Assembly (NCBI GenBank): GCA_951640195.1
Contig: OX621164.1
Span: 105,098 to 169,097 of the forward strand
Direction of reading: 5' to 3'
DNA: 64,000 nt
Source: Porpolomopsis calyptriformis
Lineage: Eukaryota; Basidiomycota; Agaricomycetes; Agaricales; Hygrophoraceae
The position numbers were made by a program, and so were the translations under genes. Of this stretch, positions 30,285-60,692 are shown piece after piece; positions within the stretch are counted from its first letter, which is position 1; each line of letters opens with the position of its first letter. The notes beneath the pieces are model-generated. The model saw only the letters and a program-made list of their open reading frames with translations, was not told where the DNA came from and made no database searches.

Positions 30285-30495
30285 TGTCACAACTGTAGTT
30301 GCAAGTCTTTTCGTCAATCACAAGGCAGGCCTTGGAGCTTAATAAGTCTAGTAGGATGTAGAAGAAAGTCCTGACGGGGACGTCCTCGTAAAGGGTAATG
30401 ATTCCTTCTGAGTTAAGTTCTACTTCTACAAAGAAGTTGTTTTGCAAGTTAAGTCCGTTACGTGCCTCTGCTGAGAGTTTAGGGAATATGGGCAT
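30285..30495 (-). CDS. D1 divergent short ORF reading out of the repeat end
   Basis: About 70 codons from the ATG at 30,495 (MPIFPKLSAEARNG) to the repeat terminus. The frame has no stop inside the repeat and in D1 runs a few codons into element A. It is preceded on the minus strand by ACTATATAAACC. The same ORF is conserved in D2 and D3 with mostly conservative changes (FFYILLDLLSSKACLV kept in all). It looks like the 5' part of a longer protein that would continue into a missing internal region. No domain recognised. Confidence 0.5.
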
Positions 30496-31003
30496 GAACG
30501 ATTGGCTCAGTAGTTATGGGTTTATGTTTCTCTTTTCTTGTTCTGATGGAAAAGAAGTCTGATGATTCTGATTGCGTTCGTGCTACTACAAGTAATCTCA
30601 CAGGAGGACGAAGTGATGATCCGCTTCGCCCTCAGGGTTTATATAGTATTTCTAAAATAGGAGTCACTATGAGTCAGCTTCCGCAGTCACCCCATTTTCT
30701 ATTGTTCACAGCCTCCGGTTTAAGGTTTGCCATTGTTCTTAGTCATACTGCGGAAGGCTGTGTTGTTTTGATGACTCAACTCTATTGGGCATAGCCTTCC
30801 GCAGTATCAGGCTGTGCTGTCTCATGACTGGTTCCTATTGTTCTTCTAGTTATGAGATTGCCACTGTTTCTATCTCTTGTCTGGCGTATCGGGTTTCTCT
30901 TCTTCGACTGAGGAACCTCCTTTTGGTCTTCCCTTTGTGTCTGAGCATATAAAAGGTGTGGGGTTGTATCCCTATGCTTCAGTTCAATCTTTGTCAATTC
31001 ATC

Positions 31004-31835
31004 ATGACTCCCTCCCACCAAGGCCACTACGTCCGATTCTTCAAACAGTCTGGAGTGGTGCACCGCACCGCTCCTGTCTTTCTCAATTGTGATTCGTTTC
31101 ATTACTTCCTTCAGCGCATCCCTTCCGACGCTGACCTCTGCTGGTCTTCCTTCTCCTGTTTTGCTTGCGGTGGCAAGCATAAGGTCAGAAAGTGTCCGTA
31201 TGTTTGCTGGCCGATCCAGCATGTTTGTGGCTTAATGGAGGATCCACTTGGTATGTATCTTGTTTTGTCTTTATTAGTCCGTGTTTATTGATAATAGGCT
31301 TTCCCTTTTTAGCTTGGGATAATAATGCCCCTCCTCCCACCTCCAAGCTCCCTTTGGAGGAGCGAGTTGATTGGAGTTCCAACTGTTGGGGGTATCCCCT
31401 CCCCTTTGATGATGCTAAGCCTGAGGACTTGGCTACCAGCCCCCCTTTCCGTCCTTGGACCCCTGGTCCAACAAGTGTTTTGTCTAGTGGTGAGTCTTTA
31501 ACTCTCTCGCTCTCTTCATAATTGTTGATTCCCTGTCTTTTTTAGTCGAAGATTTGTCGTCGTCATTGACCAATGTCAACGTCAAGATCGAGGAGGAAGA
31601 AGTTCCTCCCAGTTTATTATGGAGTCCCACCAATGATTGGTTGGGTGAGGAAGCGAGAAAGATAGCGATGAGTTTCATAGAAGGGAAGGCCGCCGAGTTG
31701 CAGGCCTCTGGTGGTGACACCAATGGGGCAATCTACTAGGGTAATAGGTTGGCCACAATAGATGGTCAGGTAGTGTCGAGTTTTGTAGAGTTCTTGAGGG
31801 ACAGTATGGTGCAGGAGATTGCCAAGACGGACTAG
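31004..31835 (+). pseudogene. D1 zinc-knuckle gene, one nonsense codon
   Basis: Exons 31004-31250, 31313-31489 and 31546-31835, with GT-AG introns in the same places as in the other copies. The protein begins MTPSHQGHYVRFFKQSG. It has a Cys/His cluster CFACGGKHKVRKC, an acidic/Pro-rich middle (EEEEVPPSLLWSP) and a C-terminal helix (SFVEFLRDSMVQEI). TAG at 31737-31739 replaces a Trp codon kept in D3. A TATA-like ATATAAAAG lies about 55 bp upstream of the ATG. Function unknown; the cluster resembles a CCHC knuckle with altered spacing (CX2CX3HX4C). Confidence 0.7.
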
Positions 31836-31994
31836 TATAATTAGCTAGTCAGACATGGACTCCTCCCTTTGTACAAGTAGTTTCCACTGCCAATAAAGAC
31901 AGCCCCCCTCCCAAAAGAACCGTTCACAAGAAAGAAAAGAAAAGAACGAAGAAAAGAGAGAAATTTTAAGAGAGTGAATACCAATTTCATGACA

Positions 31995-32911
31995 AAGACG
32001 CTGGATACAGACCAATCGAAGACTACCGTTACTTGAACCACTTTACCGTTCCTGACCAATATCCTTTACCACTCCTGCATCAGATTGTTCAACAACCAAA
32101 GCTACGATCTGCTGTGCTATTCACAGTCGTAGATATCCGATGGGGATTTAACAACATTCGGATTAAAGAAGGCGATGAATGGAAAGCCGCTTTCAACACG
32201 GTCAAGGGACTCTACGTCCCAAGAGTGATGTTCTTTGGTCTACGAAATTCCCCAGCAACGTTCCAACGGATGATCGATACGTGATTCGCTGAAGTATTAA
32301 AATCAGGTTGTGTTTTTATCTATATCGATGACGTTCTCATCTGCGGAGATGATCTAGAAGAACTACGTTACTGGACGTTCAAAACCCTTGACATCATGAA
32401 GAAAAACAAACTCTCCTGTAAACCTGTCAAATGCTAATTTGAGAAGGAAGAGGTGATCTATCTAGGGATGACCTTGACGAAAGGTCATATCGGAACCAAT
32501 CCCAAGAAGATCAAGGCCATAGTCGAATGGCCTGAACCTCAAACTGTGAAACAACTTCAATCCTTTCTCGGAAGCGCAAATTTCTGGAGAAAATACGTCA
32601 AAGACTTTTCAAAGATCGCCCAACCACTCAACCAGTTACTCTGTAAAGATACCATATGGGAATGGACTCCTGAACGACAACACACCTTTGATCAACTAAA
32701 ATATTCCCTCATGAATGCCCCTGTCCTCGAAGTACCAGATCAAGACCTACCATACTGCTTAGAGACTGACGCCTCTGGCTTTGCCTTAGGAGGAATATTG
32801 TCTCAGCTACACGAAAACGACTGGAAACCCGTAGGCTTTCATTCAAGATCTTTGACCCCTGCTGAAAAGAAATATCCAACTCACGACGCCGAGCTTTTAG
32901 CGATAATAGAC
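31995..32911 (+). pseudogene. Element A reverse transcriptase and start of RNase H
   Basis: Continues the reading broken by D1 after one copy of AAGAC. RT motifs seen: FTVVDIRWGFNNIRI, GLRNSPATFQRMID and the catalytic YIDDVLICG. The RNase H start is LETDASGFALGGILSQ. TGA at 32,281-32,283 and TAA at 32,436-32,438 interrupt it. It ends at 32,911, where element B inserted. Confidence 0.82.
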
Positions 32912-33270
32912 TGTCAGAGATATATTTTTTCTTTTTCCTTTGCTCGTCTGTTCCTATTTACATCAGACAGTTTACATTAATAGCCGCTTAGCCACCCAAG
33001 CTCCGCTTAGTAATAGAAGGTGACTAAGCCATATCTATATTTAGTCTACCATCACTCTCCTTATCTACATGACTCATGCATAGTCGTTACGACTCACACG
33101 TAGTCAGTATGACTCATACTTAGCTAGTATATAAAGCTAGCAGTAGATAGACTTAGGATAAGTCTGTTTCTTTCGTTAACACCCCAATCAGTAGTCTTCC
33201 AACCCTTTAAAACCCTACACCCAGAGCCTGAAGTAAAACCTTGCGATCAACCCTAGACTGCCGTCTAACA
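32912..33270 (+). repeat. 5' LTR of element B
   Basis: TGTCAGAG...TCTAACA. TATATAAA at 33,128-33,135; the predicted transcript start AAGTCTGTTTCT is at 33,160-33,171, 32 nt downstream of the TATA start. Differences from the 3' LTR are mostly C/T and G/A at CpG sites. Confidence 0.93.
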
Positions 33271-33282
33271 AGAAACAGACTT
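33271..33282 (+). promoter_or_regulatory. Self-priming primer-binding site of element B
   Basis: AGAAACAGACTT directly after the LTR is the perfect 12-nt reverse complement of AAGTCTGTTTCT at 33,160-33,171, the predicted mRNA 5' end. This indicates Tf1-like self-primed reverse transcription. Confidence 0.75.
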
Positions 33283-33450
33283 CCTTCTTGCTCACTCCAC
33301 GCTATACAACCCCTACTCTGTCTGGCCAGTGCTGAAGGTCTTCACCCACGAGATCAATTTCACCACCCAGACATTAACATCGATTAGGCTTGCTCTCTCC
33401 CCTTGTATTCCTGTCAAGCCCCCCAATATCCAACTGCCACCGTTCCACCA

Positions 33451-34844
33451 ATGGTTTTGACTCGTTCATCATCCACTATCCCTCACCCTGCTATCCCTCT
33501 CTCCCTCCTGCCCCAGCTCCCATCCCCGACGAGACGGTTGACCCTGCCCAAGAAGAAGAAGAAGAAGAAGAAGAAGAACAAGTGGGTCCCTCTCACTCAA
33601 AAGGGAAAGGTCGAGCTGAGGACAATGATGAGGATGAAGAAGAAGATCCACGCATAGCCTTCGAGATCATGAAGCAGGATTATCAACAATTGCTGCAGGT
33701 CCAACAAGACCAAGCGCAAGCGAGTCATAGAATTGAACAACAACTTCAAGTATTGATGGCCAACCTCATAGGCCCCCAACCTGTCCCTGCCCCTCTTGGG
33801 CCATTTCCCCAACCCTTCCAAGCACCCCCAGTATTCCCCCAACCTGTCCCTGTCCCTGCCCCTGCCCCTGCCCCCGCCAAGATCAAAATGAACCCTCCTG
33901 ATGAATTCTCTGGTGATCCCACCAAGCTTCGCAATTTCCTGCGTCAAGTGAAGCTGAACCATTTGGGACGACAAGGAATCTCAGAGGCCGACAAGATTAT
34001 CTATGCCTTGTCATTTATGATCGGAGGAAATGCAGAACCATGGGCTAAGCGTCAAGTGGACGCTTACACAACGTTGAACTGGGTTGGTGCCGATTGGGCT
34101 GTCTTTGAACAAGCCCTCACCCGAGACTTTGGAGACTTGGACCCCAAGTCAACTGCTCAACTGAAGATCAAGGACGTCAAGCAGTTCAACAAGAGCGCAG
34201 AGGAGTACAACATCAATTTCAATCGATGGGCCCATGATACTGGATACGGACAAGAAGCTTCGGTGACTTTGTATAAAGATGGACTCAACCCCTCCCTTTT
34301 GCGACAGATCTACCTTTCAGATCGTCAACCCACCACCCTCTTTGAATGGCAGTCTCGTGCTGCAGAACTTGACAGACGACATCGAGAATTCCTGGCTAGA
34401 ACATCTTCTAAGCCCCAGACTCGTAACACCCGCATCACCAACACCCCCTACTGACAAGGACCACCTGCTGGTCCCTCCACCTATTCCAACCCTGCTGCCC
34501 CCAGAATCAAACAAGAAGAAAAGCCTGCTTCACTAGGAGGAATTCCCAAAGGAGCATGTTTCAACTGTGGATGATTTGGCCACTTTGCCAGTTCTTGTCC
34601 CAATGCTCCTAGGACAAGTACTTCTGGTTCTGGAAGCCACCCCTTCACCCCAGCAGCTAGAGGTCGTGGAGGAAAGAAACCCAGTCGAGGAAGAAATGTT
34701 CGAGTTCTGGAGACCTCAGCCTTGATTGAGGAGGTCAACTCCAATGAAGATTCTCATCAAGACTTCGAGAAGTGTGGTATCGTCAACTGGGAGCCTAAGA
34801 GGAAAGAAGAGCTGAAGAGAGCTTTGGAGAAACAGGGTTTTTGA
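33451..34844 (+). pseudogene. Element B gag (frameshift near the start, nonsense codons)
   Basis: The ATG at 33,451 (MVLTRSSSTIPHPAIP) is in a different frame from the rest of gag, which is open from about 33,390 with an acidic Glu run, a helical PQPVP/PAPAP repeat and a capsid-like region (DEFSGDPTKLRNFLRQVKL; ALSFMIGGNAEPWA). The copy at the window end (element C) keeps the start in a different local sequence, so B has an indel near 33,480-33,520. TGA at 34,452-34,454 and TGA within the zinc knuckle (CFNCG-stop-FGHFASSC) sit where Arg is expected. Gag ends at TGA 34,842-34,844. Confidence 0.8.
34835..34841 (+). promoter_or_regulatory. Predicted -1 ribosomal frameshift heptamer of element B
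   Basis: G GGT TTT immediately before the gag stop TGA, with pol continuing in the -1 frame. The same G GGT TTT plus stop occurs at 29,388 in element A. The pattern fits X XXY YYZ slippery sites. Confidence 0.65.
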
Positions 34845-37800
34845 ACAGTCTGGACAATAGCTCGTGCATTGCGGACTCCTTTTCTATGTGTACCACTACC
34901 CCTATGCAATCTATTTCCCAAATTCTTGGTGCACTTGATTCGAGCGAAGAAGCTTTAACCATACCCCTTTGGTTGGAAACCACAGACACTGGTAGACGAA
35001 TTGCCGCCAGTGCATTGATAGACTCTGGCACCTCTGGATGCTTTATAAACTGGAATTTTGTGCAGGAGTGCGATATCCCTTTTTATTGATTGGAAGGACC
35101 AATCCCCGTGTGGAACGCAGATGGGACAGACAACCGAGGAGGTCCCATCGAATATGCTGTAGACCTGTGGATGGAGACGCCGGATTTTCCTAGGGAACGA
35201 ACCCATTTGGAAGTGACAAATTTAGGAGATATGATACAGGTTATCCTCGGCTACCCGTGGCTCAAACGTAACAATCCCCTGGTTGACTGGAAGGCTGGAA
35301 CACTGACTTCACGTCAGACTGTGGCCCCAACCAAGACTTCTCAGGCTGGAGTGATAGTGTCACAAGTAGGCTCTACGTTGAATGGCGACTCCTACGCCAA
35401 GATTATCAGATTGGTCTCACTGGGAGACCATGCAAGACCCACTACCGTGGAGGAAGATATGAAGAAGTATGTGCCGAAGAAATACTGGAGGCACTGGAAG
35501 GTGTTTATGAAGACCACCTTTGATGAACTTCCCCCACGACAACCAGAATTTGACCATGCGATCGATCTCGAACCTACCTTTAGACCCAAGATCAGAAAGG
35601 TGTACAAACTCACTGAGTACGAACAAGGAAAGCTGAATGAATTCCTAGAGGAACAACTTGCAAGTGGGCGAATATGACGATCAAACTCCAAACAAGCTGC
35701 CTCATTCTTCTTTGCTGCCAAAGGTGAAGAAGTTAATGCCCAAGGACAAGATGCTGGACTGTGTCCAATCCAAGACTATCGCTATCTGAATACTCACACA
35801 ATCCCAGATGCTTATCCCTTACCTCTCATCTCTGAGATTATTCAACAGACCAAGTTATTAGAAGCGGAACTGTTCACAGTCATGGATATCCGATGGGGCT
35901 TTAACAATATTTGTATCAAAGAAGGAGACGAATGGAAAGGAGCCTTCAACACTCGACGAGGGCTGTTTGAGCCCACCATTATGTTCTTTGGAATGCGAAA
36001 CTCGCCTGCCTCCTTCCAACGAATGATCGACGTTCTCTTCAAAGAGGTTATCGATTCCAAGCAGGTCCATATCTATATTGACGATATCCTGATCATGGGA
36101 AAGGACCTCACTGAACTCACCTATTGGACAGAACGAACTCTAGAGATCATGGAGAAGAATCAACTGTCCTGCAAACCCGTCAAGTGCCAGTTCGAGAAAA
36201 AGGAAGTGATTTATCTGGGGATGATGATCTCAAAAGGCCACATTGCTATTAACCCCAAGAAGGTTGAGGCGATCAGAACCTGGCCTATCCCCCAGAAGAA
36301 ACGAGATCTCCAATCCTTCCTTGGCACTGCCAACTTTTGGCGGAGGTTTATCAAGGATTACTCCCTGATTGCTCGTCCTCTTAATGAGCTCCTACGAAAG
36401 GATCAAGAATGGATTTGGACCCCTAAGCAACAACGTGCTTTTGATACCCTCAAGAATGTGCTTACCTCTGCTCCTGTTTTGAGGACCCCGAAGCCAGACC
36501 TTCCTTACCTTCTGGAGATGGATGCTTCTGGTGTTGCACTGGGTGCAGTCTTGACCCAGAAAGAGAATGACAAAGAAGATTGGCATCCCATTGGCTTCTA
36601 CTCCAAGACCCTCCTCCCAGCTGAACAAAATTACCCCACCCATGACCAAGAGCTTTTGGCCATCATATCTGCCTTGAATGAATGGAGATACCTTCTACAA
36701 GGGACATGACAGCCTATTATGATCAAGACTGATAACCAGTCCCTCCAATATTTCATGACCAGTCATCAACTCTCCAGGCGCCAGGCTAGATGGTCTGAAT
36801 TTTTAGCTCGCTTTTGGTTCAGAATCAGCTACCAGCCTAGAATCAAGAATAAGGCTGATGGACTCTCCAAGCGTCCAGATCATTACCCGGAGTCTTATGA
36901 GGAGGTGGAGGACAAGGTCCTTCTGCCAAAAGAACTTTTTGTCAATGCGCTTTTCATCAATGCGATTATCAGTTTATCGTCCCCCAACTTTTTATCCAAG
37001 CTTTGCTTTCATTCCCCCCTACCCCTCAAGATCATGGCCAAAATTGAAGATCCCTCTTCCGGATACACCCACGTAGATGGCATTGTGCGCGATGCTGGAG
37101 ATCGTATAGTTGTGCCAAAGGACATATCTTTGCGCATAGAAATTATTCGATTGACCCACGACACACCCACTGGTGGCTATCCCGGTATTGAGAAGATGAA
37201 GGAATTGCTCCTCCGTAATTACACATGGGAAGGTGCCCCACAAGATATCACCAATTATGTGAAGTCCTGCCTTGCTTGTCAACAGACCAAGGTTTATCCA
37301 CAGAAACCCACTGGACTTCTCCAACCGTTACCCCCTCCTACTAAACCGTGGCAACAGATCACTGCTGATCTAATCGTGGAACTCCCTAATTCAAAAGGAT
37401 TTGATGCTATTCTAGTTGTGGTGGACAGATTCACCAAACGGGCTCACTTTATCCCAACAACTGGAAACCTATCTACTAAAGGAACTGCTGCGCTGTTTCA
37501 AGAACATGTCTGGAAGCATCATGGATGGCCAGAGAAGATCATTACCAATCGAGGAACCCAATTCTCATCAAAATTCGCTATGTCATTGAACGAACTCCTA
37601 GGAACCACTTCTGGGCTTTCTACTGCCTATCACCCCCAAACAGATGGACAAACCGAACGGACCAATCAAGAGTTAGAGCAATACGTACGGCTCTACACTA
37701 ACTTCATGCAAGACGATTGGAAAGATTGGTTAGCTCTGGCGGAGTTCGCTTATAACAACCGAGAACATTCCTCCACTCACCAATCCCCCTTCTGGCTTGA

Positions 37801-38421
37801 ATATGGCTGACACCCTCACACCCCCTTATCAGTTCCAACCCAAACCTCAAATCCCGATGCCAACGAGTTTTACATGCAGCTTACTAGAGCTAGAGAGAAT
37901 GCTGAAGAGTCTCTTCAAAAGACCACTAACTCAATGAAGCTCTATGCCGATCGAAAACGTCAAAAGGAACCCACGTTTTACGAAGGACAAAGGGTCTGGC
38001 TTGATGCCAAGAATTTGAAAACTGGCTGGCCCACAAAGAAACTGGATGTCTGCCGGCTCGGACCTTTTATAATTCTAAAACAAGTATCGCCTGTGGCTTA
38101 CCAACTAAAGCTACCGCTGTCATGGAGGATTCATCCCGTGTTTCACGTTTCACTACTCAAGGCTCTAGAAGAGAATCTCGATCTCCACCCCCCAATTGGA
38201 GAAGATGACAATCTCCGACCACCTCTGGATGTGATTGAAGGAGAGCCCAAGTATGAAGTGGAATGTATTCTCAATCACACCCCAGGAAAATGGAACCGAC
38301 AATACCTAATCAAGTGGAAAGGCTACCCGATAGAGGCAGCCACCTGGGAACTATGATGGAACCTCAAGCACGCAAAAGATGTCTTAATGAATTATGAAAA
38401 GTCTATTCAAGCGGCGATTTA
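34841..38421 (+). pseudogene. Element B pol: protease, RT, RNase H, integrase, chromodomain
   Basis: Domains in order: protease ALIDSGTSGCF (about 35,010-35,045) and ILGYPWL; RT with FTVMDIRWGFNN, GMRNSPASFQRMID and YIDDILIMG; RNase H LEMDASGVALGAVL and TDNQSLQYF; integrase zinc region ending CLACQQTK; integrase core with TADLIVELP, TNRGTQF and TERTNQELE; and a chromodomain near 38,250-38,350 (YEVECILNHTPGKW, YLIKWKGYPIEAATWEL). The second integrase catalytic Asp is Asn here, and the second zinc-binding His is Tyr (GYPG). TGA stops at about 35,087, 35,675, 36,707, 37,808 and 38,354 all stand where CGA is expected. Confidence 0.88.
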
Positions 38422-38536
38422 ACTCTCTTTTACGAATACTACCGACATCACAATCGTTGAATCTCCTTTTCTCCTTTTCAATCTCCAACAATTATAAGGA
38501 CTTCCCCTTTCCAACAATCATCAAAAGAAGCACGAA

Positions 38537-39229
38537 ATGCCCTGTGAAGTTCGTTACGCCCGCAAGTCGACTGGGAGGCGTCCACCCCGAGGGAACCCCA
38601 CCGCTTCTACCTCCAACCTCCCCCCCGATTCTTCTTCCTCCTCTTCCTCGTCCGACAGTGTCTTGGTTACCCGACAGTTCAAGAAGCCGAAGCGACGTAC
38701 CGATACTATCGACAAGCTGGGACGAAACCGTAACTATCGAGGGCTCCCCTTTGCCAAGGTCGAGCACCTATCTGGGTGTCCCGAAACCTGCGTCCCATTT
38801 ATTTCTGGAGCACGTTGATGCGAACTTAACTACGACTGTCACTGGTACACGTTCGACAAGGACAGCGACTTTGACGACAAGAAGAATCAACTTGAAGATT
38901 GGCTGGAGGCGTACCAAGTTGGGCGCCAACTTTTGATGGTTATACCGGACCAGGACGAATCCGACGTCACCACCCCCACTATCCCCGAAGACCCCATCTT
39001 GCACCGCATCCATCGCATCACCGACCGACTCTATGCTGCCCGAAACAGGTACCGCTCAATGATGGATGCCAAGTACGAAAGGATCCTTGACTTGGAGGAG
39101 AATGCTGTGATGTGTAGGGAGCTGGCTGAAACTTGGTTGCGACGTGCCCGGGAGTTGGATGGCCGTTACCACTGGTTTGACCCAGATGGACACCTGCTTC
39201 AACCCCCAGTTTATGATGGCGCAACCTAG
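38537..39229 (+). pseudogene. Element B third ORF downstream of the chromodomain
   Basis: About 230 codons in one frame, broken once by TGA at 38,816-38,818 (CGA expected). The N-terminus is basic and Ser-rich (KSTGRRPPRG; a Ser run). The C-terminal half is a long charged helix (RITDRLYAARNRYRSMMDAK; ENAVMCRELAETWLRRAREL) ending in a YHWFDPDG motif. A TATA-like ATTATAAG lies about 45 bp upstream. It does not resemble an envelope protein. A similarly placed ORF occurs in element A, so it is likely an original part of this lineage. Confidence 0.65.
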
Positions 39230-39508
39230 GGACCAGATGCTGTTTCCGAACGAACAGTATTCCTTACGCCTCCCTTCTGGATGTGTGGTTAGAGAAGGTG
39301 ATATCTACTGGAGAGTTGAGGAAAAGTATACCTAGTGGATAGTCTTTGATCCGACAACTATCCACTCATCCCTCCTCTTCATCGCTCACCCATCTCATCA
39401 CCCCTCTACCCACCTCTACCATCCCTTTACACATCCCCTTGACACCCTTCCTTCGCTTCGAAGGGTCTCCTCAAAATTCGGGACCAATTTCCTTTTTGTG
39501 GAGGTGAA

Positions 39509-39867
39509 TGTCAGAGATATATTTTTTCTTTTTCCTTTGCTCATCTGTTCCTATTTACATCAGACAGTTTACATCAATAGCCACTTAGCCACCCAAGCTC
39601 CGCTTAGTAATAGAAGGTGACCAAGCCATATCTATATTTAGTCTACCATCACTCTCCTTATCTACATGACTCATCCATAGTCGTTACGACTCACACATAG
39701 TCAGTATGACTCATACTTAGCTAGTATATAAAGCTAGCAGTAGATAGACTTAGGATAAGTCTGTTTCTTTCATTAACACCCCAATCAGTAGTCTTCCAAC
39801 CCTTTAAAACCCTACACCCAGAGCCTGAAGTAAAACCTTGCGATCAACCCTAGACTGCCGTCTAACA
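39509..39867 (+). repeat. 3' LTR of element B
   Basis: 359 bp, same ends as the 5' LTR. A purine-rich GTGGAGGTGAA precedes it as the likely polypurine tract. It is followed by TAGAC. Confidence 0.93.
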
Positions 39868-41606: not shown

Positions 41607-41770
41607 CTCGTTTGTCATCATTCCGGCTGTCCATTTTCTGAATTCTATTCTTAGGTCGAGTTGGCATTTATAAACCCAGAATCATTGATACGATTCCATC
41701 CAGTCTTTTCCTACCTTTGACGAACCTACCCAACACTATTGTTCCCAACATCATTGAACCATCGCTCATA

Positions 41771-42508: not shown

Positions 42509-42542
42509 AATTCGGGTCGAATTTCCTGAAAAACGAGGTGTA

Positions 42543-42811: not shown

Positions 42812-43011
42812 NNNNNNNNNNNNNNNNNNNNNNNNNNNNNNNNNNNNNNNNNNNNNNNNNNNNNNNNNNNNNNNNNNNNNNNNNNNNNNNNNNNNNNNNN
42901 NNNNNNNNNNNNNNNNNNNNNNNNNNNNNNNNNNNNNNNNNNNNNNNNNNNNNNNNNNNNNNNNNNNNNNNNNNNNNNNNNNNNNNNNNNNNNNNNNNNN
43001 NNNNNNNNNNN
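42812..43011. other. Assembly gap (200 N)
   Basis: Exactly 200 N, a placeholder length. The missing DNA should include the last roughly 120 bp of the A LTR and its target duplication, and possibly more. Confidence 0.99.
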
Positions 43012-49661: not shown

Positions 49662-51305
49662 TAGGTCAGCTGGAACCTGAAATCCAAGCCTATATTGACA
49701 CCTGAGACCTGTCTCCCAAGCCCAAACTGTGTGCTAGGGACAAGAGCCTGAACCAGGCAATGAGCAAACATCTATAACAATAGAAAACTAAGTTCTGTCT
49801 GAAATGACACTAAAACTACAATACATCCACTATGTACTAGGACACCTATATTGAAGGGGCAAATATATTGTAACATGGACATCGATGATATATGAATACC
49901 AACAACAGCCCTTTACTAACCAAGTAACCAAAGTCACTAACAAAGACAATTGCTAGAATAGCTTAGACAGTATGTCTAATAACTAAGAGCCATCAAAGGA
50001 CCAAGAGGCTAAGGAAATGGAAAGAGAAGAGTATATGCCAATCCACAGGATATTGAAAGCCACGCCACTGACACTACTTGCCCATATTGCCAACAACAAT
50101 GAACTAGAAAGATATAGCAAATGTCTGAAATGACTATAAACTAAGGTACAATAGAGAAGGACAACAAGAGTCCTACAATGGAGAGGGGCCATTGATAAAC
50201 TAACCCAGAAGGTTGCACTGACAACCAGAGCCTTGCAATGGAGAGGGACTATTAGTAAACAAACCTGGAAGGTTACTGTATCAACCTGAATGTCTGTAAT
50301 GACACTAAACTATCATGCTATTGATACTAAGCTAAACAGCAACATCTATACCTGGAAATGAACAATAATGACTACCCAAGTTCTCTGTCTAATTGCTACT
50401 AGCACAGAGACTGAACCTACTAACCACAAAGCCAAAAACCAGTGAAAACCCCAACCGAAGCCTAGGAGGCAATACTGGCTGAACTCAAGCTATTATAACC
50501 AAGGCCCTCTGGAACAAGGATCTCCAGCTAAGAGATGAGGAAAGGGAAAGTGGAGAATATATCAGCTCCCAGAATACCAGATGAAAAGCTATAAACAATG
50601 ATGAACACCCAAATGCTGAAACCCTGATTACATGCTAGCAAGAACCACTTCCTAGACCCCAATGGAAAGCTGCAAAAAGGTATATGAGAAGGCATAGCAA
50701 TACAAGCTGCTGAAGATATATGCCAAGCCTAACGCGCAAGAAGTACAACACAGCCAATGCACCCAAAGATATCAACCACACCCTGCTGAAGGGAAGATGC
50801 AACCTGATCACCCACCTAACTAGACCCAAGGAAGTAACAATAGGATCATCCTGATATAGTCACCAACCACCAACTGCTACCACCATCTACATGGAAGATT
50901 AGCCACCATGTGTGCACACCCAAAAATCCTGTATATTAATATGCATGGTATAAGGGGGTGAAATGAGTTTATACCCTATGCAATGTTGACACATAGAAGA
51001 GGCATAACAGAGTAAACTGCCTCACACACAATGTACATGGAAGTACCCCCAGCGTCATGGGAAAGAGTACTGCTCTGAGAGTGGAAACCCTATGGATGAA
51101 GAACCCAAGCTGATAACAGAAGGACAACACCTCATATACCCCACTACTATCATGAAATTGGCGTTCACTCTCTTAAAATTCCTCTCTTTTCTTCGTTCTT
51201 TTCTTTTCTTTCTTATACCAGTTCTTTTGGAGGGGAGGCTGTCTTTATTGGCAGCGGAAACTACTTGTACAAAAGGAGGAATCCATGTCTGACTAGCTAA
51301 TTATA

Positions 51306-52138
51306 CTAGTCCGTCTTGGCAATCTCCTGCACCATACTGTCCCTCAAGAACTCTACAAAACTCGACACTACTTGACCATCTATTGCAGCCAACTTATTAC
51401 CCCAGTAGATTGCCCCATTGGTGTCACCACCGGAGGCCTGCAACTCGGCAGCCTTCCCTTCAACGAAACTCATCGCTATCTTTCTCGCTTCCTCACCCAA
51501 CTAATCGTTGGTGGGACTCCATAACAAACTGGGAGGAACTTCTTCCTCCTCGATCTTGACATTGACGTTGGTCGACGACGACGACAAATCTTCAACTAAA
51601 AAAGATAGAGAATCAGCAACTATGAAGAGAGCGAGAGAGTTAAAAGGCTCACCACTAGACAAAACACTTGTTGGACCAGGGGTCCAAGGACGGAAAGGGG
51701 GGCTGGTAGCCAAGTCCTCAGGCTTAGCATCATCAAAGGGGAGGGGATACCCCCAACGGTCGGAACTCCAATCAACTCGCTCCTCCAAAGGGAGCTTGGA
51801 GGTGGGAGGAGGGGCGTCATCATCCCAAGCTAAAAAGGGAAAGCCTATTATCAATAAACACAAACTAATAAAGACAAAACAAGATACATACCAAGCGGAT
51901 CCTCCATCAAGCCACAAACATGCTGGATTGGCCAGCGAACATACGGACACTTTCTGACCTTATGCTTGCCACCGCAAGCAAAACAAGAGAAGGAAGACCA
52001 GCAGAGGTCGGCGTCGGAAGGGATGCGCTGAAGGTAATAATGAAATGAATCGCAATCGAGAAAGACAGGAGCAGTGCGGTGCACCACTCCAGACTGCTTG
52101 AAGAATCGGACGTAGTGGCCTTGGTGGGAGGGAGTCAT
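51306..52138 (-). pseudogene. D2 zinc-knuckle gene, one nonsense codon
   Basis: ATG at 52,138, three exons with introns at the conserved places, stop at 51,306-51,308. A single internal TAG (51,501-51,503) replaces Trp in the SPTNDW motif. Otherwise it is open, with CFACGGKHKVRKC and SFVEFLRDSMVQEI intact. Confidence 0.7.
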
Positions 52139-52646
52139 GATGAATTGACAAGGATTGAACTGAAGCGTAGGGATACAACCCCACACCTTTTATATGCTCA
52201 GACACAAAGGGAAGACCAAAAGGAGGTTCCTCAGTCAAAGAAGAGAAACCCGATACGCCAGACAAGAGATAGAAACAACGGCGATCTCATGACTAGAAGA
52301 ACAATAGGAACCAGTCATGAGACAGCACAGCCTGATACTGCGGAAGGCTATGCCCAATAGAGTTGAGTCATCAAAACAACACAGCCTTCTGCAGTATGAC
52401 TAAGAACAATGGCAAACCTTAAACTGGAGGCTGTGAACAATAGAAAATGGGGTGACTGTAGAAGCTGACTCATAGTGACTCCTATTTTAGAAATACTATA
52501 TAAACCCTGAGGGTGAAGCAGATCATCACTTCGTCCTCCTGTGAGATTACTTGTAGTAGCATGAACGCAATCAGAATCATCAGACTTCTCTTCCATCAGA
52601 ACAAGAAAAGAGAAACATAAACCCATAACTACTGAGCCAATCGTTC

Positions 52647-52857
52647 ATGCCCATATTCCCTAAACTCTCAGCAGAGGCACGCAACGGATTCAACTCACAG
52701 AACAACTTCTTTGTAGAAGTAAAACTTAACTCAGGAGGAATCATCACCCTTTACAAGGATGTCCCCATCAGAACTTTCTTCTACATCCTACTAGACTTAT
52801 TAAGCTCCAAGGCCTGCCTTGTGATTGATGAAAAGACTTGCAACTACAGTTGTGACA
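52647..52857 (+). CDS. D2 divergent short ORF
   Basis: ATG at 52,647, open to the repeat end and slightly beyond, the same protein start as in D1 and D3 (MPIFPKLSAEARNGF). Preceded by ACTATATAAACC at about 52,495. No recognised domain. Confidence 0.45.
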
Positions 52858-54025
52858 ACTACCACCAACACACTAGCCCATGGAACTAGAGCAAGCATAA
52901 AAGAAATGGGGATATGAAGGAGAAGGCAAAGGAGAACTGAATGCTGACCTTTTGACACCAGCTGAAAGGGGAACATGATATCAACACCTACCCACATTGC
53001 CATTTGTTAAATCACTCTATCTATTACCCAGATGACTGTATGAATACATGCACATATAGATTAAAGTCACACCATTCTGGAAGAAGAAGCTGAAATAACT
53101 TATACACTACACAACCACTATTAGATCACTGATAAGTACCACTGAAAGGCTGATGCATACTACTAAAGGGCCAACAAGGACCAAACCTAGGTAGCAAGTA
53201 GTCAACCTCCCAATCCCACCTAAGCTAAGTACACAGCTACTACATGTGCAACCAAGGAAGCTATCCTGCACCATACCATCCCTCCAAAACTCTGACACCT
53301 TATCCCAATCCCACACACACAGACACCACCAGATAATGATGCATCTGTAACAATGTAAAACTAGACCGTGTCCGCAATAACATTAAACTACAATAGTATC
53401 TACCAATTTGACAAATGCCATTACTGCCCACTATACACCCAATGGACAATGGACAATGCCCCACACTGAAACCCACAGCAATGGAAGACCCACCACTGTC
53501 ATTTTCACCACTGTATGTGAAGAAACCTCAAGTGCCATTGTGAGCACAGGGAATCTATGATCAGCTAACAAAACCTAGCTATGCAAACCCTGTAAATGCA
53601 TGCTGAAGGACTAAGAACTCAAAAGCATACAAATCCCCAACTATGCTACTACAAGACCACAAATGCAATACCCACCCATACCAGATGAATATCCTGCTTA
53701 TGCATTGTCAAGGACACTGCAAACATTAAGGCTGCAATAGACACCAGACTGCAGTGAGTGAATGCTCCTGGTTGACAGGCTGTTGTGAGCTGGCTAGACA
53801 TGTCATATGCTGAGACAATGACCTCTGAGCTACCAGAGAGAATGCCAATTGACACAGAGACCTCCAAACCTGAGATGAATCCAACAATAGGTACAATTGA
53901 AGCTTTCAAAGCCCACCTTTTATTCCTAGTCAACCCCATTCCATGACCATTCTAATCTATATTACATGTATAGATTAAGGGGGTATACTCTAAAACCTCT
54001 ACAGCTACTATAGCTTGAGGGGGTG

Positions 54026-54139
54026 TGTTGGAAGTTGTGTAATCCATAGTGTACATTTTGTACTAGTAATCATCATGGTATTATGAACAAGTTGTCCACC
54101 ACTACATCAGTAGGCAAGGTAGCTTGTCAAACATTAACA
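54026..54139 (+). repeat. 3' LTR of element E
   Basis: 114 bp, starting TGTTGGAAGTTG and ending TTAACA, followed by GAAAG. Confidence 0.82.
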
Positions 54140-54756
54140 GAAAGAACTTGTCATATGGTTTATGCAGTCTGCTTGATCAATTTTGGCTGCTCATGCACTC
54201 TATAGGTTGTTCCTATCAGGTGTCAAATTCAATCTCAACTGATTTCAGGAGGTTACATATTGTTGCAGTAATGTACCTTGCCTGTGTTTCAATGCAGCAG
54301 TGTTACCCCAAAAGCTTCAGATCAATAAAGATAATATTTATAATGTAATTAATCAAACTAATAACTTAGCTAATGCTATTATTCATGTGCACACTGTGTT
54401 ATGATCCCAAACTGATTTGGTATCAAACCTAACCAAAGATTATGCATTCAGGAAGTAGCATTCAATAGCCCTCTAATACCCTTTATCTTATCTTATCTTA
54501 TCTTATCTTAGATAAGATATACTACTATCTTTCACATATACTATCTTATCATGGACAATAGCATTCTACTCCATTGTTCTCTGAGTTAGAATAACTCATA
54601 TTCTATTTCTCCATTATTCTCCTATCACTCCATTATCCTCTGAGTCACTATAACTTATATTGATCTTCCCCATTGTTCTCCCCATTGTCTGACTCATAGT
54701 AAGTTACAATTTCAAACTCCTCATTGTTCTTTTATCCATTATTCTTATTCCCCATT

Positions 54757-55163
54757 TGTTAGGACCTAAGCTTGTTTGGGTCTTGAGGCCTGGCTCAGGA
54801 TGAACTTGTTGACAGGGATAATAAATGGATGAGCACAAAGTTGTTGCAATACCAAGTTCAGGTATACAGACAAGTAAGTTAAAAACTATAGATACAGGGG
54901 TAGCTACTAGTCTTATATAGTAATGGATAATTAGGGGTAGTTATATGTATGTGACTGAGTTGGAATATCTAGGGTGATCAGTCCTGAGATATGTATAAGA
55001 CATAGTAAGCTATCATAAGTCTAAGATATAGTAAGTCATCATGAGACAGATAAGTCTAAGACATGGCAAGTCATTATGAGACAGATAGGTCTAAGATGTA
55101 GTAAGATGGATAAGTTCTAATAAGGGAAAAGAGTAGAAGTTGATGGAAATAGTAATTCTGATA
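54757..55163 (+). mobile_element. Repeat H (407 bp), solo-LTR-like
   Basis: Interrupts F2 relative to F1. Starts TGTTAGGACC and ends TTCTGATA (CA decayed to TA). Flanks CCATT (54,752-54,756) and CTATT (55,164-55,168) differ by one transition. Non-coding. Confidence 0.6.
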
Positions 55164-55753
55164 CTATTGTTCTCATTACCTATTGTTCTCAAACATATAT
55201 AAAGGGCCCCCTTTGGACCAGTGAGGAGAGTTAGTTCACTTTCAACCCACTTTATCCCCACCCCCCCCCTAGTCTACTCTCCCCCTTTTCCCTTGAACTC
55301 ACCACCTAGTACTTAGTACCTAGTGCTACCCCTTGTTGATACTACTTGTCTGTAGTCAATACATCCAATCCAGTCTAGTCTATTAAGCTTATATCTTGTG
55401 TAATTTACCCTAAGCCCTCTTATATGAAGAACTAACTTAGGAATCACCCCTTGATGTATTCTGTAAGTTGAAGATAGCCATTGTAGACTATCTTATCTTA
55501 TCTCATTCCCTGCTTATTCATCACATACTCAAAGTCTCAGTCCTTATTAGAGGGACCTCACTGTGATAAGTATTCTTCTAAGTCAGCTATTAACTTAATT
55601 CTTACTCTCCCAGTCAATACTATCTATTAAGTTTGGATAGCCTATTCATCTGTATATCCTAGCTAAGGATTAATCAAGCCCTATCAAAGGAGGAAGTATT
55701 TATTATCAATCAATCCACATCTCCCCTGAATAACCAGAACTTACTTGATTAAC

Positions 55754-56120
55754 TGTTATGTTTTGGTAGTCAAAGGTTTTACTTCTCATGTTGGAGGGGC
55801 TGATAGGGAATAGAGATTCAACTAAAGAGTGGGGAACTAACTAGGAATCAAACTTAATCTACTGACTAGAGGTTAGGCTTTATGTACTAACTACCTGAGT
55901 TACCATGAGTCAATCATAAGGATGATTACAAAGCGGAATCTGGAATGTGACTAGTGAAGGGTCACAAAAAGAATGGTGGAAGTGGAATGTGACTTGTAAA
56001 GAGTTGGAAAGGAAATACATGTGACTACTCTCTATATATAAATCAGTAAAGTGGAAGGATGAACGGTTAAGAGACTAATCTAATATGACTAAAAGAAAAA
56101 GAAAAAGTATGTCTGTGACA
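55754..56120 (+). mobile_element. Repeat G (367 bp), solo-LTR-like, TSD TTAAC
   Basis: Absent from the corresponding place in F1. TGTTATGTTTTGG ... GTCTGTGACA, flanked by TTAAC at 55,749-55,753 and 56,121-56,125. Non-coding. Confidence 0.78.
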
Positions 56121-56322
56121 TTAACATATAACTCTAGTAGTTCTAGAAGTGAAGTATTAATACTTCACCTGATAGCTGGTGAACCAATCTATAGTGCATT
56201 TGAAATATACCCCACTCTCTCAAATAGAGCTTTCATATCTTGTCTGGTATAACCCCTGTCTGACTTTGCTGTTGAATGGATAGTAGCTAAGCTAGACTAA
56301 TGAGGTGCTAGTGCTGCATATC

Positions 56323-56533
56323 TGTCACAACTGTAGTTGCAAGTCTTTTCGTTAATCACAAGGCAGGCCTTGGAGCTTAATAAGTCTAGTAGGATATAGA
56401 AGAAAGTTCTGACAGGGACATCTTCGTATAGAGTGATGATTCCTTCTGAATTAAGTTTTACTTCTACAAAGAAGTTGTTCTGCGGGTTGAATCCGTTGCG
56501 TGCCTCTGCTGAGAGTTTAGGGAATATGGGCAT
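56323..56533 (-). CDS. D3 divergent short ORF
   Basis: ATG at 56,533, open through the repeat terminus and eight codons beyond it. Same protein as in D1 and D2. No domain recognised. Confidence 0.45.
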
Positions 56534-57040
56534 GAACGGTTGGCTCAGTAGTTATGGTTTTGTGTTTCTCTTTTCTTGTTCTGATGGAAAAGAAGTCTGA
56601 TGATTCTGATTGCATTTGTGCTACTACAAGTAATCTCACAGGAGGACAAAGTGATGATCCGCTTCACCCTCAGGGTTTATATAGTATTTCTAAAATAGGA
56701 GTCATTATGAGTCAACCTCCGCAGTCACCCCATTTTCTATTGTTCACAGCCTCCGGTTTAAGGTTTGCCATTGTTCTTAGTCATACTGCAGAAGGCTGTG
56801 TTGTTTTGATGACTCAACTCTATTGGGCATAGCCTTCCGCAGTATTAGGCTGTGCTGTCTCATGACTGGTTCCTATTGTTCTTCTAGTCATGAGATCGCC
56901 GTTGTTTCTATCTCTTGCCTGGCATATCGGGTTTCTCTTCTTTGACTGAGGAATCTCCTTTTGGTCTTCCCTTTGTGTCTGAGCATATAAAAGGTGTGGG
57001 GTTGTATCCCTACGCTTCAGTTCAATCCTTGTCAATCATC

Positions 57041-57867
57041 ATGACTCCCTCCCACCAAGGCCACTACGTCCGATTCTTTAAGCAGTCTGGAGTGGTGCAC
57101 CGCACTGCTCCCATCTTTCTTGATTGTGATTCATTTCACTACTACCTCCAGCGCATCCCCTCCGACGCCGACCTCTGTTGGTCTTCCTTCTCTTGCTTTG
57201 CCTGCGGTGGCAAGCACAAAGTCAAGAAGTGTCCGTTCATTCGCTGGCCAATCCAGCATGCTTGCGGCTTGATGGAGGATCTGCTTGGTGAGTATCTTGT
57301 TTTGTCTTTATTAGTCTGTGTTTATTGATAATAGGCTTTCCCTTTCTTAGCTTGGGATGATGACGCCCCTCCCTCTACTTCCCAGCTCCCTGAGGAGCAG
57401 GTTAATTGGGGGTCTGACAAGTGGGCTGACTCTCTCCCTTCTGTCAAGAAGGAGGCAGTCAACTGGGCTACCAGTCCCCCTTTCTGTCCTTGGACCCCTG
57501 GTCCAATGAGTTCTTTATCTAGTGGTAAGCTCTCAATTCTCTCGCTCTCTTCATGATTGTTGACTCTTTATTCTTAGTGGAAGATTTGTCGTCGTCATTC
57601 ACTAATGTCAACATCAAGATCGAGGAGGAAGAAATTCCTCCCAGTTTGTTGTGGAGTCCCACCAACGATTGGTTGGGTGAGGAAGTGAGAAAGATAGCGA
57701 TGAGTTTTGTTGAAGGGAAGGCTGCCGAGTTGCAGGCCTCCGGTGGTAACACCAATGGGGCAATCTACTGGGGTAATAAGTTGGCCGCATTAGATGGTCA
57801 AGTAGTTTCGAGTTTTGTAGAGTTCTTGAGGGACAGTATGGTGCAGGAGATTGCCAAGATGGACTAG
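57041..57867 (+). CDS. D3 zinc-knuckle gene, intact after splicing
   Basis: Exons 57041-57287, 57351-57524 and 57578-57867 give 236 residues with no stop. It has the conserved start MTPSHQGHYVRFFKQSG, the Cys/His cluster CFACGGKHKVKKC, an acidic middle and the C-terminal helix. All splice sites are canonical (GTGAGT/TTAG, GTAAGC/TTAG) and fall at the same codon positions as in D1, D2 and D4. The exon 2 segment at about 57,385-57,465 is unlike the other copies, while both flanks are nearly identical. Function unknown; nucleic-acid binding is plausible from the Cys/His cluster. Confidence 0.65.
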
Positions 57868-58992
57868 TATAATTAGTTAGTCGGCCATGGACTCCTCCTT
57901 CTGTACAAGTTGTTTCCGCTGCCAATAAAGACAGCCCCCTTCCAAAAGAATTAGTATAGAAAAGAAAAGAAAAGAAAAGAATTTTAATAGAGTGAATGCC
58001 AATTTCATGACAATATCAGTTCTACCAAATAATGAAAGGGCTTCCCCAAAGTGCTGCATTGGTTAGATGAGTGTTTGAATCTAAAGTTCACAACTTCTTC
58101 TAGTCTATCACTTAGCTGAGGGGTTTTCATATACATTCCCTCAACTGCCCCTTGGCTGGATTTGATATCCAGTTTTCCTCCCATACTTCACACAATGCTT
58201 TTAGAACCATTCAAGAGTTTTCCAGCCTATTAAAATCTTCTATCACAAATAGTAATTCATGCTACCTCAAGCTGATGTCTCACATCTTTCCAACCTTTGA
58301 TTCCTTGCTGTACTAACATGGAGTGTCTCAACCTGGCTATTAACCTATAATTTGGATTCAGATTACCACATCCCATAACCATCCTATCAGCATTAAAGGT
58401 CTAGAAGTGGTTCAAACAGGTCTTAAACCTAAGGATCCTATAGTGAAAGCTCTTCAACTACTCACAAATACAAAGTTAATTATCCTTTTTATTATCCCAC
58501 AACCCATGGCAGAGACTTTTGAAAAGGAGAGAATTAATAATGCAGAGAAGGTCCTGCATTGGGATGCAAAGACTACTCAGTTTGTTCTTGGGTTACTAGA
58601 GGAAGAGGTGATGAGATTATAAGTACTATTATCTACTACTAGTATATCCCTTAGTTAATAGTTAATAACTTCTTCCCTTCTTATGATTAGAAAGGTTAGA
58701 TAATACCTAGCAGAGTGAGGCAAGTGGAATGATACTAGACTTGTAATATAATAGGCCCTTACTTCCTAACCACTATCTAGTCTTGAGTTATTAGCAAAAC
58801 TATGTTTTATTTGTGTTTAGCTTATAGATGTAAGCCAAATCCATAGTAAGTCATAGCAGGCTATAGCAGGTCATAGTATGTTATAGCAACAGCCCTATCA
58901 TATACAGTGTACTAGCACTATTTTGCACACTATTACAATTTTGCACATTAATAAGAATAGTCTTAAGCTTCTTTGAACCTCTACTATGTGGC

Positions 58993-60692
58993 TGTTATGA
59001 AATTGGTATTCACTCTTTCAAAATTCCATTCTTTTCCTCTCTTTTCTGTGCCTGTTCCTTCTGAAGGGGGGCTGTCTTTATTGGCAGCAGAGACTATGTG
59101 TATAAGAAAGGGGGTCCATGTCCGACTAATTACCTAAAACTAGTCCATCTTGGCAATCTCCTGCACCATACTGTCCCTCAAGAACTCTATGAAACTAGAA
59201 ACTACTTGACCATCTAATGCAGCCAACTTATTACCCTAATAGATTGCCCCATTAGTATCTCCACCAGAAGCCTGCAATTCAGCAGCCTTCCCCTCGATAA
59301 AACTCATCGCAATCTTTCTCGCTTCCTCACCCAACCAATCATTAGTGGGACTCCACAACAAACTGGGAGGAACTTCTTCTTCCTCAATCTTGACATTAAC
59401 ATTGGTCAATGACAAGGACAAATCTTCAACTAAAAAGATAAAGGATTAACAATTATGAAGAGAGTGAGAGAGTTGAGAGCATTACTACTAGATAAAGGAC
59501 TTAATGGACCAGGGGTCCAAGGATAGAAAGGGGGGCTGGTATCCAAGTCCTCAGGCTTAGCATCATCAAAGGGGAGGGGATACCCCCAATGATCGGAACT
59601 CCAATCAACTTGCTCCTCTAAAGGGAGCTTGGAACTAGGGGGAGGGGCATCATCATCCCAAGCTAAAAAGGGAAAAAGCCTATTATCAACAAACACAGAC
59701 TAATAAAGACAAAACAAGATACATACCAAGCGGATCCTCCATCAAGCCACAAACATGCTGGATTAGCCAGCAAACATACGGACACTTCCTAACTTTGTGC
59801 TGGCCACTGCAAGCAAAACAAGAGAAGGAGGGCCAACAGAGGTCAGCATTGGAAGGGGTGCACTGAAGGTAGTAGTGGAAAGAATCGCAATCAAGGAAGA
59901 CAGGAGTGGTGCGGTGCACCACCCTAGACTGCTTGAAGAATCGAATGTAGTGGCCTTGGTGGGAGGGAGTTATAATGATTGACAAGGATTGAACTGAAGC
60001 ATAGGGATACAACTTCACACCTTTTATACATCTATGAACAAAGGGAGGACCAAAAAGAGGTTCCTTAGTCAAAGAAGAGAAACCCGATACGCCGGACAAG
60101 AGATAGAAACAATGGCGATCTCATGACCAGAAGAACAATAGGAACTAGTCATGAGACAACACAGCCTAATGCTGCGGAAGGCAGTGCCCAATAGAATTGA
60201 GTCAACAGAAGCACATAGCCTTCCGCAGTATGACTAGGAACAATGGCAAACCTTAAAACTGGAGGCTGTGAACAATAGAAAATGGGGTGACTGCCGAGGC
60301 TGACTCATAATGACTCCTATTTTAGAAATACTATATAAACCCTGAGGGCGAAGTGGATCATCACTTCATCCTCCTGTGAGATTACTTGTAGTAGCACAAA
60401 TGCAATCAGAATCATCAGACTTCTTTTCCATCAGAACAAGAAAAGAGAAACATAAACCCACTATCACTGAACCAACTGTTTATACCTATATTCCCTAAAC
60501 TCTCAGCAGAGGCATGTAATGGATTTAACCCACAACAGAACTTCTTTGTAGAAGTCAAACTTAACACAGAAGGATTCATCACCCTTTATGAAGACGTTCC
60601 TGTCAGAACCTTTTTCTATATCCTTTTAGACTTATTAAGCTCCAAGGCCTGCCTTGTGATCAATGAAAAGACTTGCAACTACAGTTGTGATA
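58993..60692 (-). mobile_element. Repeat D4 (1,700 bp), TSD GTGGC
   Basis: Inverted copy, ends decayed (TGTTATG and TGATA), flanked by GTGGC at 58,988-58,992 and 60,693-60,697. The most degraded of the four. Confidence 0.85.
59156..59968 (-). pseudogene. D4 zinc-knuckle gene, start codon lost
   Basis: The reading matches the other copies, but the start ATG has become ATA near 59,966-59,972. The Cys/His cluster reads CFACSGQHKVRKC, and a Trp-to-stop change occurs in the last exon at the same place as in D1. Confidence 0.6.

What the first reader, a model, noticed from the sequence alone, without database searches (positions are those of the whole stretch)
30285..60692. D repeat: four independent 1.7-kb insertions carrying a spliced zinc-knuckle gene and a divergent ORF that exits the terminus
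D1 (30285-31994), D2 (51148-52857), D3 (56323-58012) and D4 (58993-60692) each have TGTCA...TGACA ends and a different exact 5-bp target duplication (AAGAC, ACTAC, ATATC, GTGGC). Each has a three-exon gene (Cys/His cluster CX2CX3HX4C) with its own TATA-like box, and on the other strand a 70-codon ORF running through the terminus as if into a missing internal region. The simplest reading is a solo LTR of a large-LTR retroelement transcribed in the direction of the short ORF. The spliced gene would then be antisense to the element's genomic RNA, which would explain how introns survive reverse transcription. I know of no described element with this design.
Basis: partly seen in the sequence, partly recalled or inferred. 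Interest (0 to 1): 0.88.

Follow-up and report, generated by a model that had tools for sequence, protein, structure and literature searches.

The report
Spliced backward gene inside retrotransposon LTRs
These four repeats are leftover ends of a fungal jumping gene whose ends themselves carry a conserved, intron-containing gene running backwards, so even the cut-down remnants that normally code for nothing can still carry a protein gene.

Summary
D1-D4 are solo LTRs of a Ty3/gypsy chromovirus with 1.7-kb LTRs. Two full-length elements were checked end to end (8.76 kb, gag-pol with chromodomain, one 5-bp target duplication outside); the genome holds 16 primer-site leaders against about 254 LTR copies. 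The element's RNA runs in the direction of the short ORF, so the three-exon zinc-knuckle gene is antisense and lies wholly inside the LTR.

Selection marks both frames as genes: dN/dS is about 0.16 (antisense) and 0.10 (LTR part of the sense ORF), against about 1 or more in most control-frame bins; introns are GT-AG in 77/77 and 76/77 copies. Changes after insertion look neutral, so selection acted on the mobile lineage.

The "70-codon ORF" begins a 167-codon leader ORF that crosses a Tf1-like primer site and overlaps gag.

Neither protein has a detected homologue and no RNA data exist here. Function is inferred: most likely a nucleic-acid-binding regulator of the element. Antisense accessory genes are known, but my searches found none spliced and inside an LTR.

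The parts
30285..31994 (-). D1: solo LTR (element sense strand = minus), TSD AAGAC
51148..52857 (+). D2: solo LTR (element sense strand = plus), TSD ACTAC
56323..58012 (-). D3: solo LTR (element sense strand = minus), TSD ATATC; antisense gene intact
58993..60692 (+). D4: solo LTR (element sense strand = plus), TSD GTGGC
57041..57287 (+). D3 antisense gene exon 1 (zinc knuckle CX2CX3HX4C)
   Evidence: codon-position distances .058/.043/.179
57288..57350 (+). D3 antisense gene intron 1 (GT-AG in 77 of 77 copies)
57351..57524 (+). D3 antisense gene exon 2 (more variable)
57525..57577 (+). D3 antisense gene intron 2 (GT-AG in 76 of 77 copies)
57578..57867 (+). D3 antisense gene exon 3 (most conserved exon; stop included; 236 aa in total)
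56986..56992 (+). TATAAAA box of the antisense gene in D3
   Evidence: TATAAAA in at least 70 of 77 copies (the six commonest variants)
57924..57929 (+). AATAAA, likely poly(A) signal of the antisense gene in D3
   Evidence: in at least 72 of 77 copies (the six commonest variants)
56690..56985 (.). Putative bidirectional promoter of D3 (between divergent TATA boxes; two TGASTCA sites in 64 of 77 copies; inverted repeats)
56675..56690 (-). TATA box of the element's genomic RNA in D3 (CTATATAAACC)
56323..56533 (-). LTR part of the leader ORF in D3 (first 70 codons)
31004..31835 (+). D1 antisense gene, exons 31004-31250, 31313-31489, 31546-31835; one stop in exon 3
30285..30495 (-). D1 LTR part of the leader ORF
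51306..52138 (-). D2 antisense gene, exons 51892-52138, 51653-51829, 51306-51595; one stop in exon 3
52647..52857 (+). D2 LTR part of the leader ORF
59140..59973 (-). D4 antisense gene, exons 59727-59973, 59486-59662, 59140-59429; start lost and one stop
60482..60692 (+). D4 LTR part of the leader ORF; start codon lost

Best explanation
D1-D4 are solo LTRs of a Ty3/gypsy chromovirus of a fungus, probably self-priming. Shown by sequence: its 1.7-kb LTR carries, on the strand opposite to gag-pol, a complete predicted three-exon gene for a 236-238 aa zinc-knuckle protein with its own TATA box and AATAAA signal, next to a putative bidirectional promoter; and on the sense strand the first 70 codons of a 167-codon leader ORF that crosses the primer site and overlaps gag. 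Both frames were kept by purifying selection while the element lineage was mobile; inserted copies decay neutrally as far as three LTR pairs can tell. Following from known biology: introns on the antisense strand are not spliced from genomic RNA, so they are copied at each cycle; LTR-LTR recombination leaves the gene in each solo LTR. Inferred: the antisense protein is made, binds nucleic acid through the zinc knuckle and acts in trans on the element's own LTR or RNA as a regulator (activator, anti-silencing factor or repressor); leader protein and gag are both translated from the genomic RNA, perhaps by leaky scanning.
For: LTR pairs, TSDs and gag-pol. Copy counts: 254 zinc-knuckle sites, 256 sense-TATA sites, 16 primer sites (up to 3, 2 and 3 mismatches). 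Splice sites 77/77 and 76/77; coding length a multiple of three in 71 of 77 copies while intron lengths vary 61-65 and 53-58. Pairwise dN/dS 0.156 (1934 of 2926 pairs with dS 0.2-0.6) and 0.098 (1338 of 2926), against 0.64-5.3 over the bins of the shifted frames. Codon-position distances .078/.050/.189 and .061/.017/.190, introns .134. No opposite-strand frame is open across the gene in any of 71 copies, and in exon 3 at most 1 of 71 per frame. Leader continues in frame inside the element.044/.025/.099 over 63 codons. Post-insertion changes in 3 LTR pairs: 95 differences, 93 transitions, 67 at CpG; antisense N/S 28/17 against 1.56 expected. Primer site AGGACGAAGTG lies 2 nt after the LTR and is complementary to CACTTCGTCCT about 30 nt after the sense TATA (exact in 46 of 77 LTRs, within one mismatch in 75 of 77).
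Against: No RNA or protein data: transcription, splicing and translation are all predicted. Neither protein has a homologue or Pfam match, and the two AlphaFold2 models are poor (pLDDT 47.5 and 31.2), so function is unsupported beyond the Cys/His motif, which no Pfam model recognised. Most fetched copies are broken (31 of 77 intact by strict count). One opposite-strand frame also shows a low ratio (0.226), because its third positions coincide, and in exon 1 that frame is open in 35 of 71 copies. Few pairs of the shifted-frame controls reach dS 0.2-0.6 (12-65 for three of the four forward shifts, none for the fourth), and there the ratios are 0.64-0.89. The related family read at one locus lacks the gene and has 469-bp LTRs, so the gene is not needed for retrotransposition in general.
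Confidence: 0.78

Rival explanations
1. The antisense unit acts as an RNA (antisense or dsRNA trigger, promoter interference), and the open frame is incidental.
For: Antisense transcripts without coding capacity are known from other elements (PMC7264820, passages). No protein homologue.
Against: Constraint is codon-specific: third positions diverge 0.189 against 0.050-0.078 at the others; 71 of 77 copies keep the coding length a multiple of three; shifted frames give ratios mostly near or above 1.
Confidence: 0.07
2. The gene is host-serving: a captured host gene, or LTR copies domesticated by the host, with selection acting on resident copies.
For: 254 zinc-knuckle sites against 16 primer sites, so by subtraction over 200 lie in LTRs without an interior; 31 of 77 examined copies are intact.
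Against: Changes since insertion fit neutrality in 3 LTR pairs (28/17 against 1.56) and many solo copies carry stops. No such gene outside the LTR family was seen, but the similarity searches score only the best 40 candidates, so a distant host progenitor or a single domesticated copy is not excluded.
Confidence: 0.1
3. D is a DNA transposon or MITE-like unit rather than an LTR.
For: Short inverted ends and 5-bp duplications would also fit some DNA transposons.
Against: Same-orientation pairs flank gag-pol in 8.76-kb elements with one TSD outside; the primer site and a purine tract abut D.
Confidence: 0.01
4. The leader ORF is not a protein gene of its own but an extension of Gag, joined by frameshift or splicing.
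For: It overlaps gag by about 32 codons in another frame; in the 5 open copies a CCT|GTGAGA donor-like site precedes it and pyrimidine-rich acceptor-like sites such as TTCTTTTCAG lie within it. In L080 an indel puts the frame after the leader stop in line with gag.
Against: In the 5 open copies the leader ends at its own stop inside gag; it has its own ATG and codon constraint. Few other AUGs lie between (mean 2.0 against 4.8 expected, 13 related leaders), which fits leaky scanning.
Confidence: 0.25

Closest known systems
Antisense additional ORFs of plant and fungal LTR elements (maize Grande gene23, rice RIRE2, Silene Retand, Botrytis Boty brtn)
   Same: A conserved accessory gene antisense to gag-pol in an LTR element; function unknown; own promoter in Grande (PMC7264820, passages read; PMC11963269, passages, where most Retand antisense ORFs encode known domains, chiefly TRP28).
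   Different: Those are described between pol and the 3' LTR, so one copy per element and (inference) lost in solo LTRs. Here the gene is wholly in the LTR, has two predicted introns, is doubled in each element and survives in solo LTRs. The brtn paper itself was not seen; I know it only through citing papers.
HTLV-1 hbz and other retroviral antisense genes
   Same: Antisense gene driven by the 3' LTR, with spliced transcripts; regulates the provirus (PMC10186651, passages).
   Different: hbz encodes a bZIP protein and its coding region reaches into the proviral interior (recalled); here start, introns, stop and AATAAA signal all lie in the LTR and the protein has a zinc-knuckle-like cluster. 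Animal retrovirus against fungal retrotransposon.
MMTV sag
   Same: A protein gene located in an LTR (recalled; one search is a listing with abstract starts only).
   Different: Sense strand (recalled); superantigen; no relation to this protein was tested.
Tf1/Tf2 of fission yeast and related fungal chromoviruses
   Same: Self-complementarity of 11 nt between RNA start and primer site (the Tf1 figure is recalled); the integrase piece matches Pfam SH3_Tf2-1.
   Different: LTRs of a few hundred bp without a gene, and no leader ORF (both recalled).

Membership tests
Ty3/gypsy LTR retrotransposon (Metaviridae) | Two same-orientation LTRs flanking an internal region, one short TSD outside | tested here: met
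   Two elements, TSD GCGGT and CTGTC
Ty3/gypsy LTR retrotransposon (Metaviridae) | gag, protease, RT, RNase H, integrase in this order (integrase last) | tested here: met
   Pfam matches on pieces in order along L010
Ty3/gypsy LTR retrotransposon (Metaviridae) | RT places it in a tree with Ty3/gypsy | not tested
   Only Pfam and homologue lists
Chromovirus | Chromodomain at the integrase C-terminus | tested here: met
   PF00385, E 2.2e-15 in the L009 piece
Self-priming (Tf1-type) elements | Primer site complementary to the 5' end of the RNA rather than to a tRNA | tested here: inconclusive
   11-nt complementarity at the right places; the RNA start is inferred from the TATA box and tRNAs were not compared
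LTR elements with antisense accessory ORF (Grande, RIRE2, Retand, Boty) | Antisense conserved ORF in the element | tested here: met
LTR elements with antisense accessory ORF (Grande, RIRE2, Retand, Boty) | ORF between pol and the 3' LTR | tested here: not met
   It lies inside the LTR
hbz-type retroviral antisense gene | bZIP domain | tested here: not met
   No Pfam match
hbz-type retroviral antisense gene | Antisense transcript started in the LTR and spliced | not testable with these tools
   Predicted only
CCHC zinc knuckle (Pfam PF00098) | CX2CX4HX4C | tested here: not met
   Antisense protein has CX2CX3HX4C and no Pfam hit; the element's own Gag piece does match zf-CCHC

The most novel reading that the evidence does not exclude
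A retroelement in which the LTR, not the interior, is the seat of its accessory genes, so that solo LTRs remain expressed protein genes. About 254 scattered copies, those still intact, would then form a trans-acting pool whose dose follows LTR number and outlives gag-pol, feeding back on the element's own (apparently methylated) LTRs: copy-number control, or anti-silencing, by remnants thought to be non-coding.
Probability: 0.3. Interest if true: 0.88.

Novelty: new variant of a known kind. Interest (0 to 1): 0.74.

Why it matters
Solo LTRs are usually treated as non-coding remnants. Here LTR recombination deletes gag-pol but spares a conserved gene, so the decay of elements need not remove this protein. 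The design also shows a clean way for introns to survive reverse transcription, makes the primer site part of a coding frame, and separates selection on the mobile lineage from neutral decay after insertion in one data set. It makes the old question of what antisense accessory genes do testable: the gene sits beside its own promoter in a 1.7-kb unit with about 254 natural copies.

Tried and rejected
Homologues: antisense protein (173 candidates, none with E up to 1) and leader protein (19 candidates, none). Positive control: the integrase piece gives 4238 hits at E up to 1e-20 among 7992 scored, best 64% identity, so relatives of the element are in the database; but an intron-split gene or a short leader ORF would often not be predicted as a protein there, so the negative result is weak. 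Viral contigs: none for the antisense protein or the integrase piece. PDB sequence matches were weak (best E 0.86 and 0.036) and not credited. Origin from the element's Gag zinc-knuckle piece: no similarity. AlphaFold2 models of exon 3 and the leader protein were too poor to use, so no fold search was made. One related family at one locus (L086) was read and lacks the gene; five other loci were asked for and not obtained. The MAFFT alignment of D1-D4 mixed orientations and was discarded; one search replaced it. Literature: ten searches (listings) found no spliced gene inside an LTR; two searches returned nothing, and the library lacks most subscription papers.

Dropped before counts: BLAST matches spanning under about 1400 bases of the query; 3 of 80 LTR placements (cut or misbounded) before the 77-copy analyses; 6 of 77 copies treated as segmental duplicates, leaving 71, but kept. 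Of about 254 copies only the best-scoring near-full-length ones for queries D2 and D4 and those near interiors were fetched, so intact fractions are probably biased upward.
Full report
What is there. The window sits at C2:105098-169097 of a 33.5-Mb, 17-contig genome that is not named. The host is probably a basidiomycete fungus: the only organism names among the 120 listed relatives of the integrase piece are Tulasnella calospora and Rhizoctonia solani; this is inference.

Full-length elements. Searching the genome with D2 gave same-orientation pairs 8.76 kb apart. Two were read: L009 (8766 bp, LTRs 2.3% apart) and L010 (8761 bp, LTRs 1.7% apart), each with one 5-bp duplication outside. Between the LTRs are a Gag with a zf-CCHC knuckle, aspartic protease, RT, RNase H, H2C2 integrase and, in the L009 piece searched, a chromodomain. 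The gag and pol frames of both copies are broken by stops. A purine-rich tract abuts the 3' LTR. Pattern counts over the genome are 254 zinc-knuckle sites, 256 sense-TATA sites and 16 primer sites, reversed controls 0; of the 66 listed zinc-knuckle rows on contigs C1-C3, 58 have an exact TATA site on the other strand at the LTR spacing, and 8 do not (only exact TATA rows were compared). Of 80 LTR placements, 52 have exact 5-bp duplications; the other 28 include LTRs of full-length elements, cut, duplicated and nested copies. No D-family RT match or primer site is listed in the window, so D1-D4 are solo LTRs.

The antisense gene. In D3 the exons are 57041-57287, 57351-57524 and 57578-57867, 236 codons. 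In 77 copies intron 1 is GT-AG in all and intron 2 in 76; coding length is a multiple of three in 71; intron lengths vary; 31 copies are fully intact. Exon indels are few (10 distinct events in 711 bases, 5 of them multiples of three), against 14 events, 3 of them multiples of three, in 108 intron bases. Divergence is highest at third codon positions in all three exons, with the weakest contrast in exon 2. dN/dS for diverged pairs is 0.156 against mostly about 1 or more in forward-shifted frames; of the three opposite-strand frames two give 0.79-1.96 and one 0.226-0.64, because its wobble sites coincide. That opposite reading is excluded as the cause: no sense frame is open across the gene in any of 71 copies, and in exon 3 at most 1 of 71 per frame, although in exon 1 one sense frame is open in 35 of 71. 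Variants found in 15 or more copies are mostly synonymous (13 N, 44 S), while single-copy variants are less so (64 N including 7 stops, 53 S), with about 3.1 N per S expected from the singleton spectrum. Even the single-copy variants thus fall below the neutral expectation, perhaps because some predate insertion.

Where selection acts. The two LTRs of an element are identical at insertion (established biology), so their differences date from afterwards. In three elements there are 95 such differences, 93 transitions, 67 in CpG and 22 in CpA context, which looks like methylation- or RIP-type deamination. In the antisense gene they are 28 nonsynonymous and 17 synonymous codons, ratio 1.65, against 1.56 expected from the same context rates; the pairs differ (16/6, 7/2, 5/9). 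So inserted copies appear to drift, and the constraint between copies was laid down while the lineage moved. The number is small, and the expectation was fitted to the same three pairs.

The leader ORF. It is fully open in 5 of 13 leaders; the other 8 have TGA stops at codons 12, 92 or 98, and one of these has 2 gap positions as well. Codon constraint continues inside the element. AUGs between leader start and gag start are fewer than shuffles predict (mean 2.0 against 4.8), but the 13 leaders are close relatives and two (L078, L084) show no clear depletion. The gag start is lost in L079, and the third gag codon is a stop in L084.

Signals. The sense TATA is followed after about 30 nt by CACTTCGTCCT, complementary to AGGACGAAGTG two bases beyond the LTR: the arrangement of self-priming Tf1-type elements (mechanism recalled; one search is a listing only). 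The antisense TATAAAA box (at least 70 of 77), the AATAAA signal (at least 72 of 77) and two TGASTCA motifs (64 of 77; recalled as AP-1/Gcn4-type) are conserved, and the roughly 300 bp between the two TATA boxes has low divergence for non-coding sequence (0.074 against 0.134 in introns and 0.177 in the 3' part).

How it probably works. Genomic RNA starts in R and carries the antisense gene once, in U3, as its complement; the splice signals are not on that strand, so introns pass through reverse transcription, and each new insertion receives two copies. LTR recombination leaves one. The protein, with a knuckle-like Cys/His cluster and a conserved C-terminal exon modelled as helical at low confidence, is most likely a nucleic-acid-binding regulator. 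I cannot tell activator or anti-silencing factor from repressor; selection on the mobile lineage favours the first two, the parallel with hbz (PMC10186651, passages) the last.

Known or new. Antisense accessory genes in LTR elements are known (PMC7264820 and PMC11963269, passages), as is the LTR-driven spliced antisense hbz. The points I did not find described are placement wholly inside the LTR, predicted introns, survival in solo LTRs, and a leader ORF spanning LTR, primer site and gag start. A new variant of a known kind.

Noticed in passing
G000 C1:3.65-4.00 Mb and C9:0.11-0.45 Mb: Four LTR pairs share the same target duplications in mirrored order on C1 and C9 (GACAA, GTTTG, TCTGG, GGTGG), so these stretches look like a segmental duplication or uncollapsed haplotype.
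   Followed up: partly
LTR pairs of L009, L010 and C12:491149/504885: Post-insertion change is almost purely transitions at CpG, then CpA: a DNA-methylation or RIP-like signature.
   Followed up: partly
L086 (C3:911000-920000): A different Ty3/gypsy-like element with 469-bp LTRs, related in RT (69% over 374 bases), without the antisense gene.
   Followed up: partly
window 42812-43011: A run of 200 N: an assembly gap or withheld stretch.
   Followed up: no
window 56783-56845 (D3): An 18-nt inverted repeat (ATACTGCAGAAGGCTGTG / CATAGCCTTCCGCAGTAT) and a second, 10-nt one at 56858-56895 in the putative bidirectional promoter, with variants of both in the other copies; possible regulator-binding sites.
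   Followed up: partly
C13:862611-868910 (L013): Three D copies within 6.3 kb, one inverted relative to the other two.
   Followed up: no
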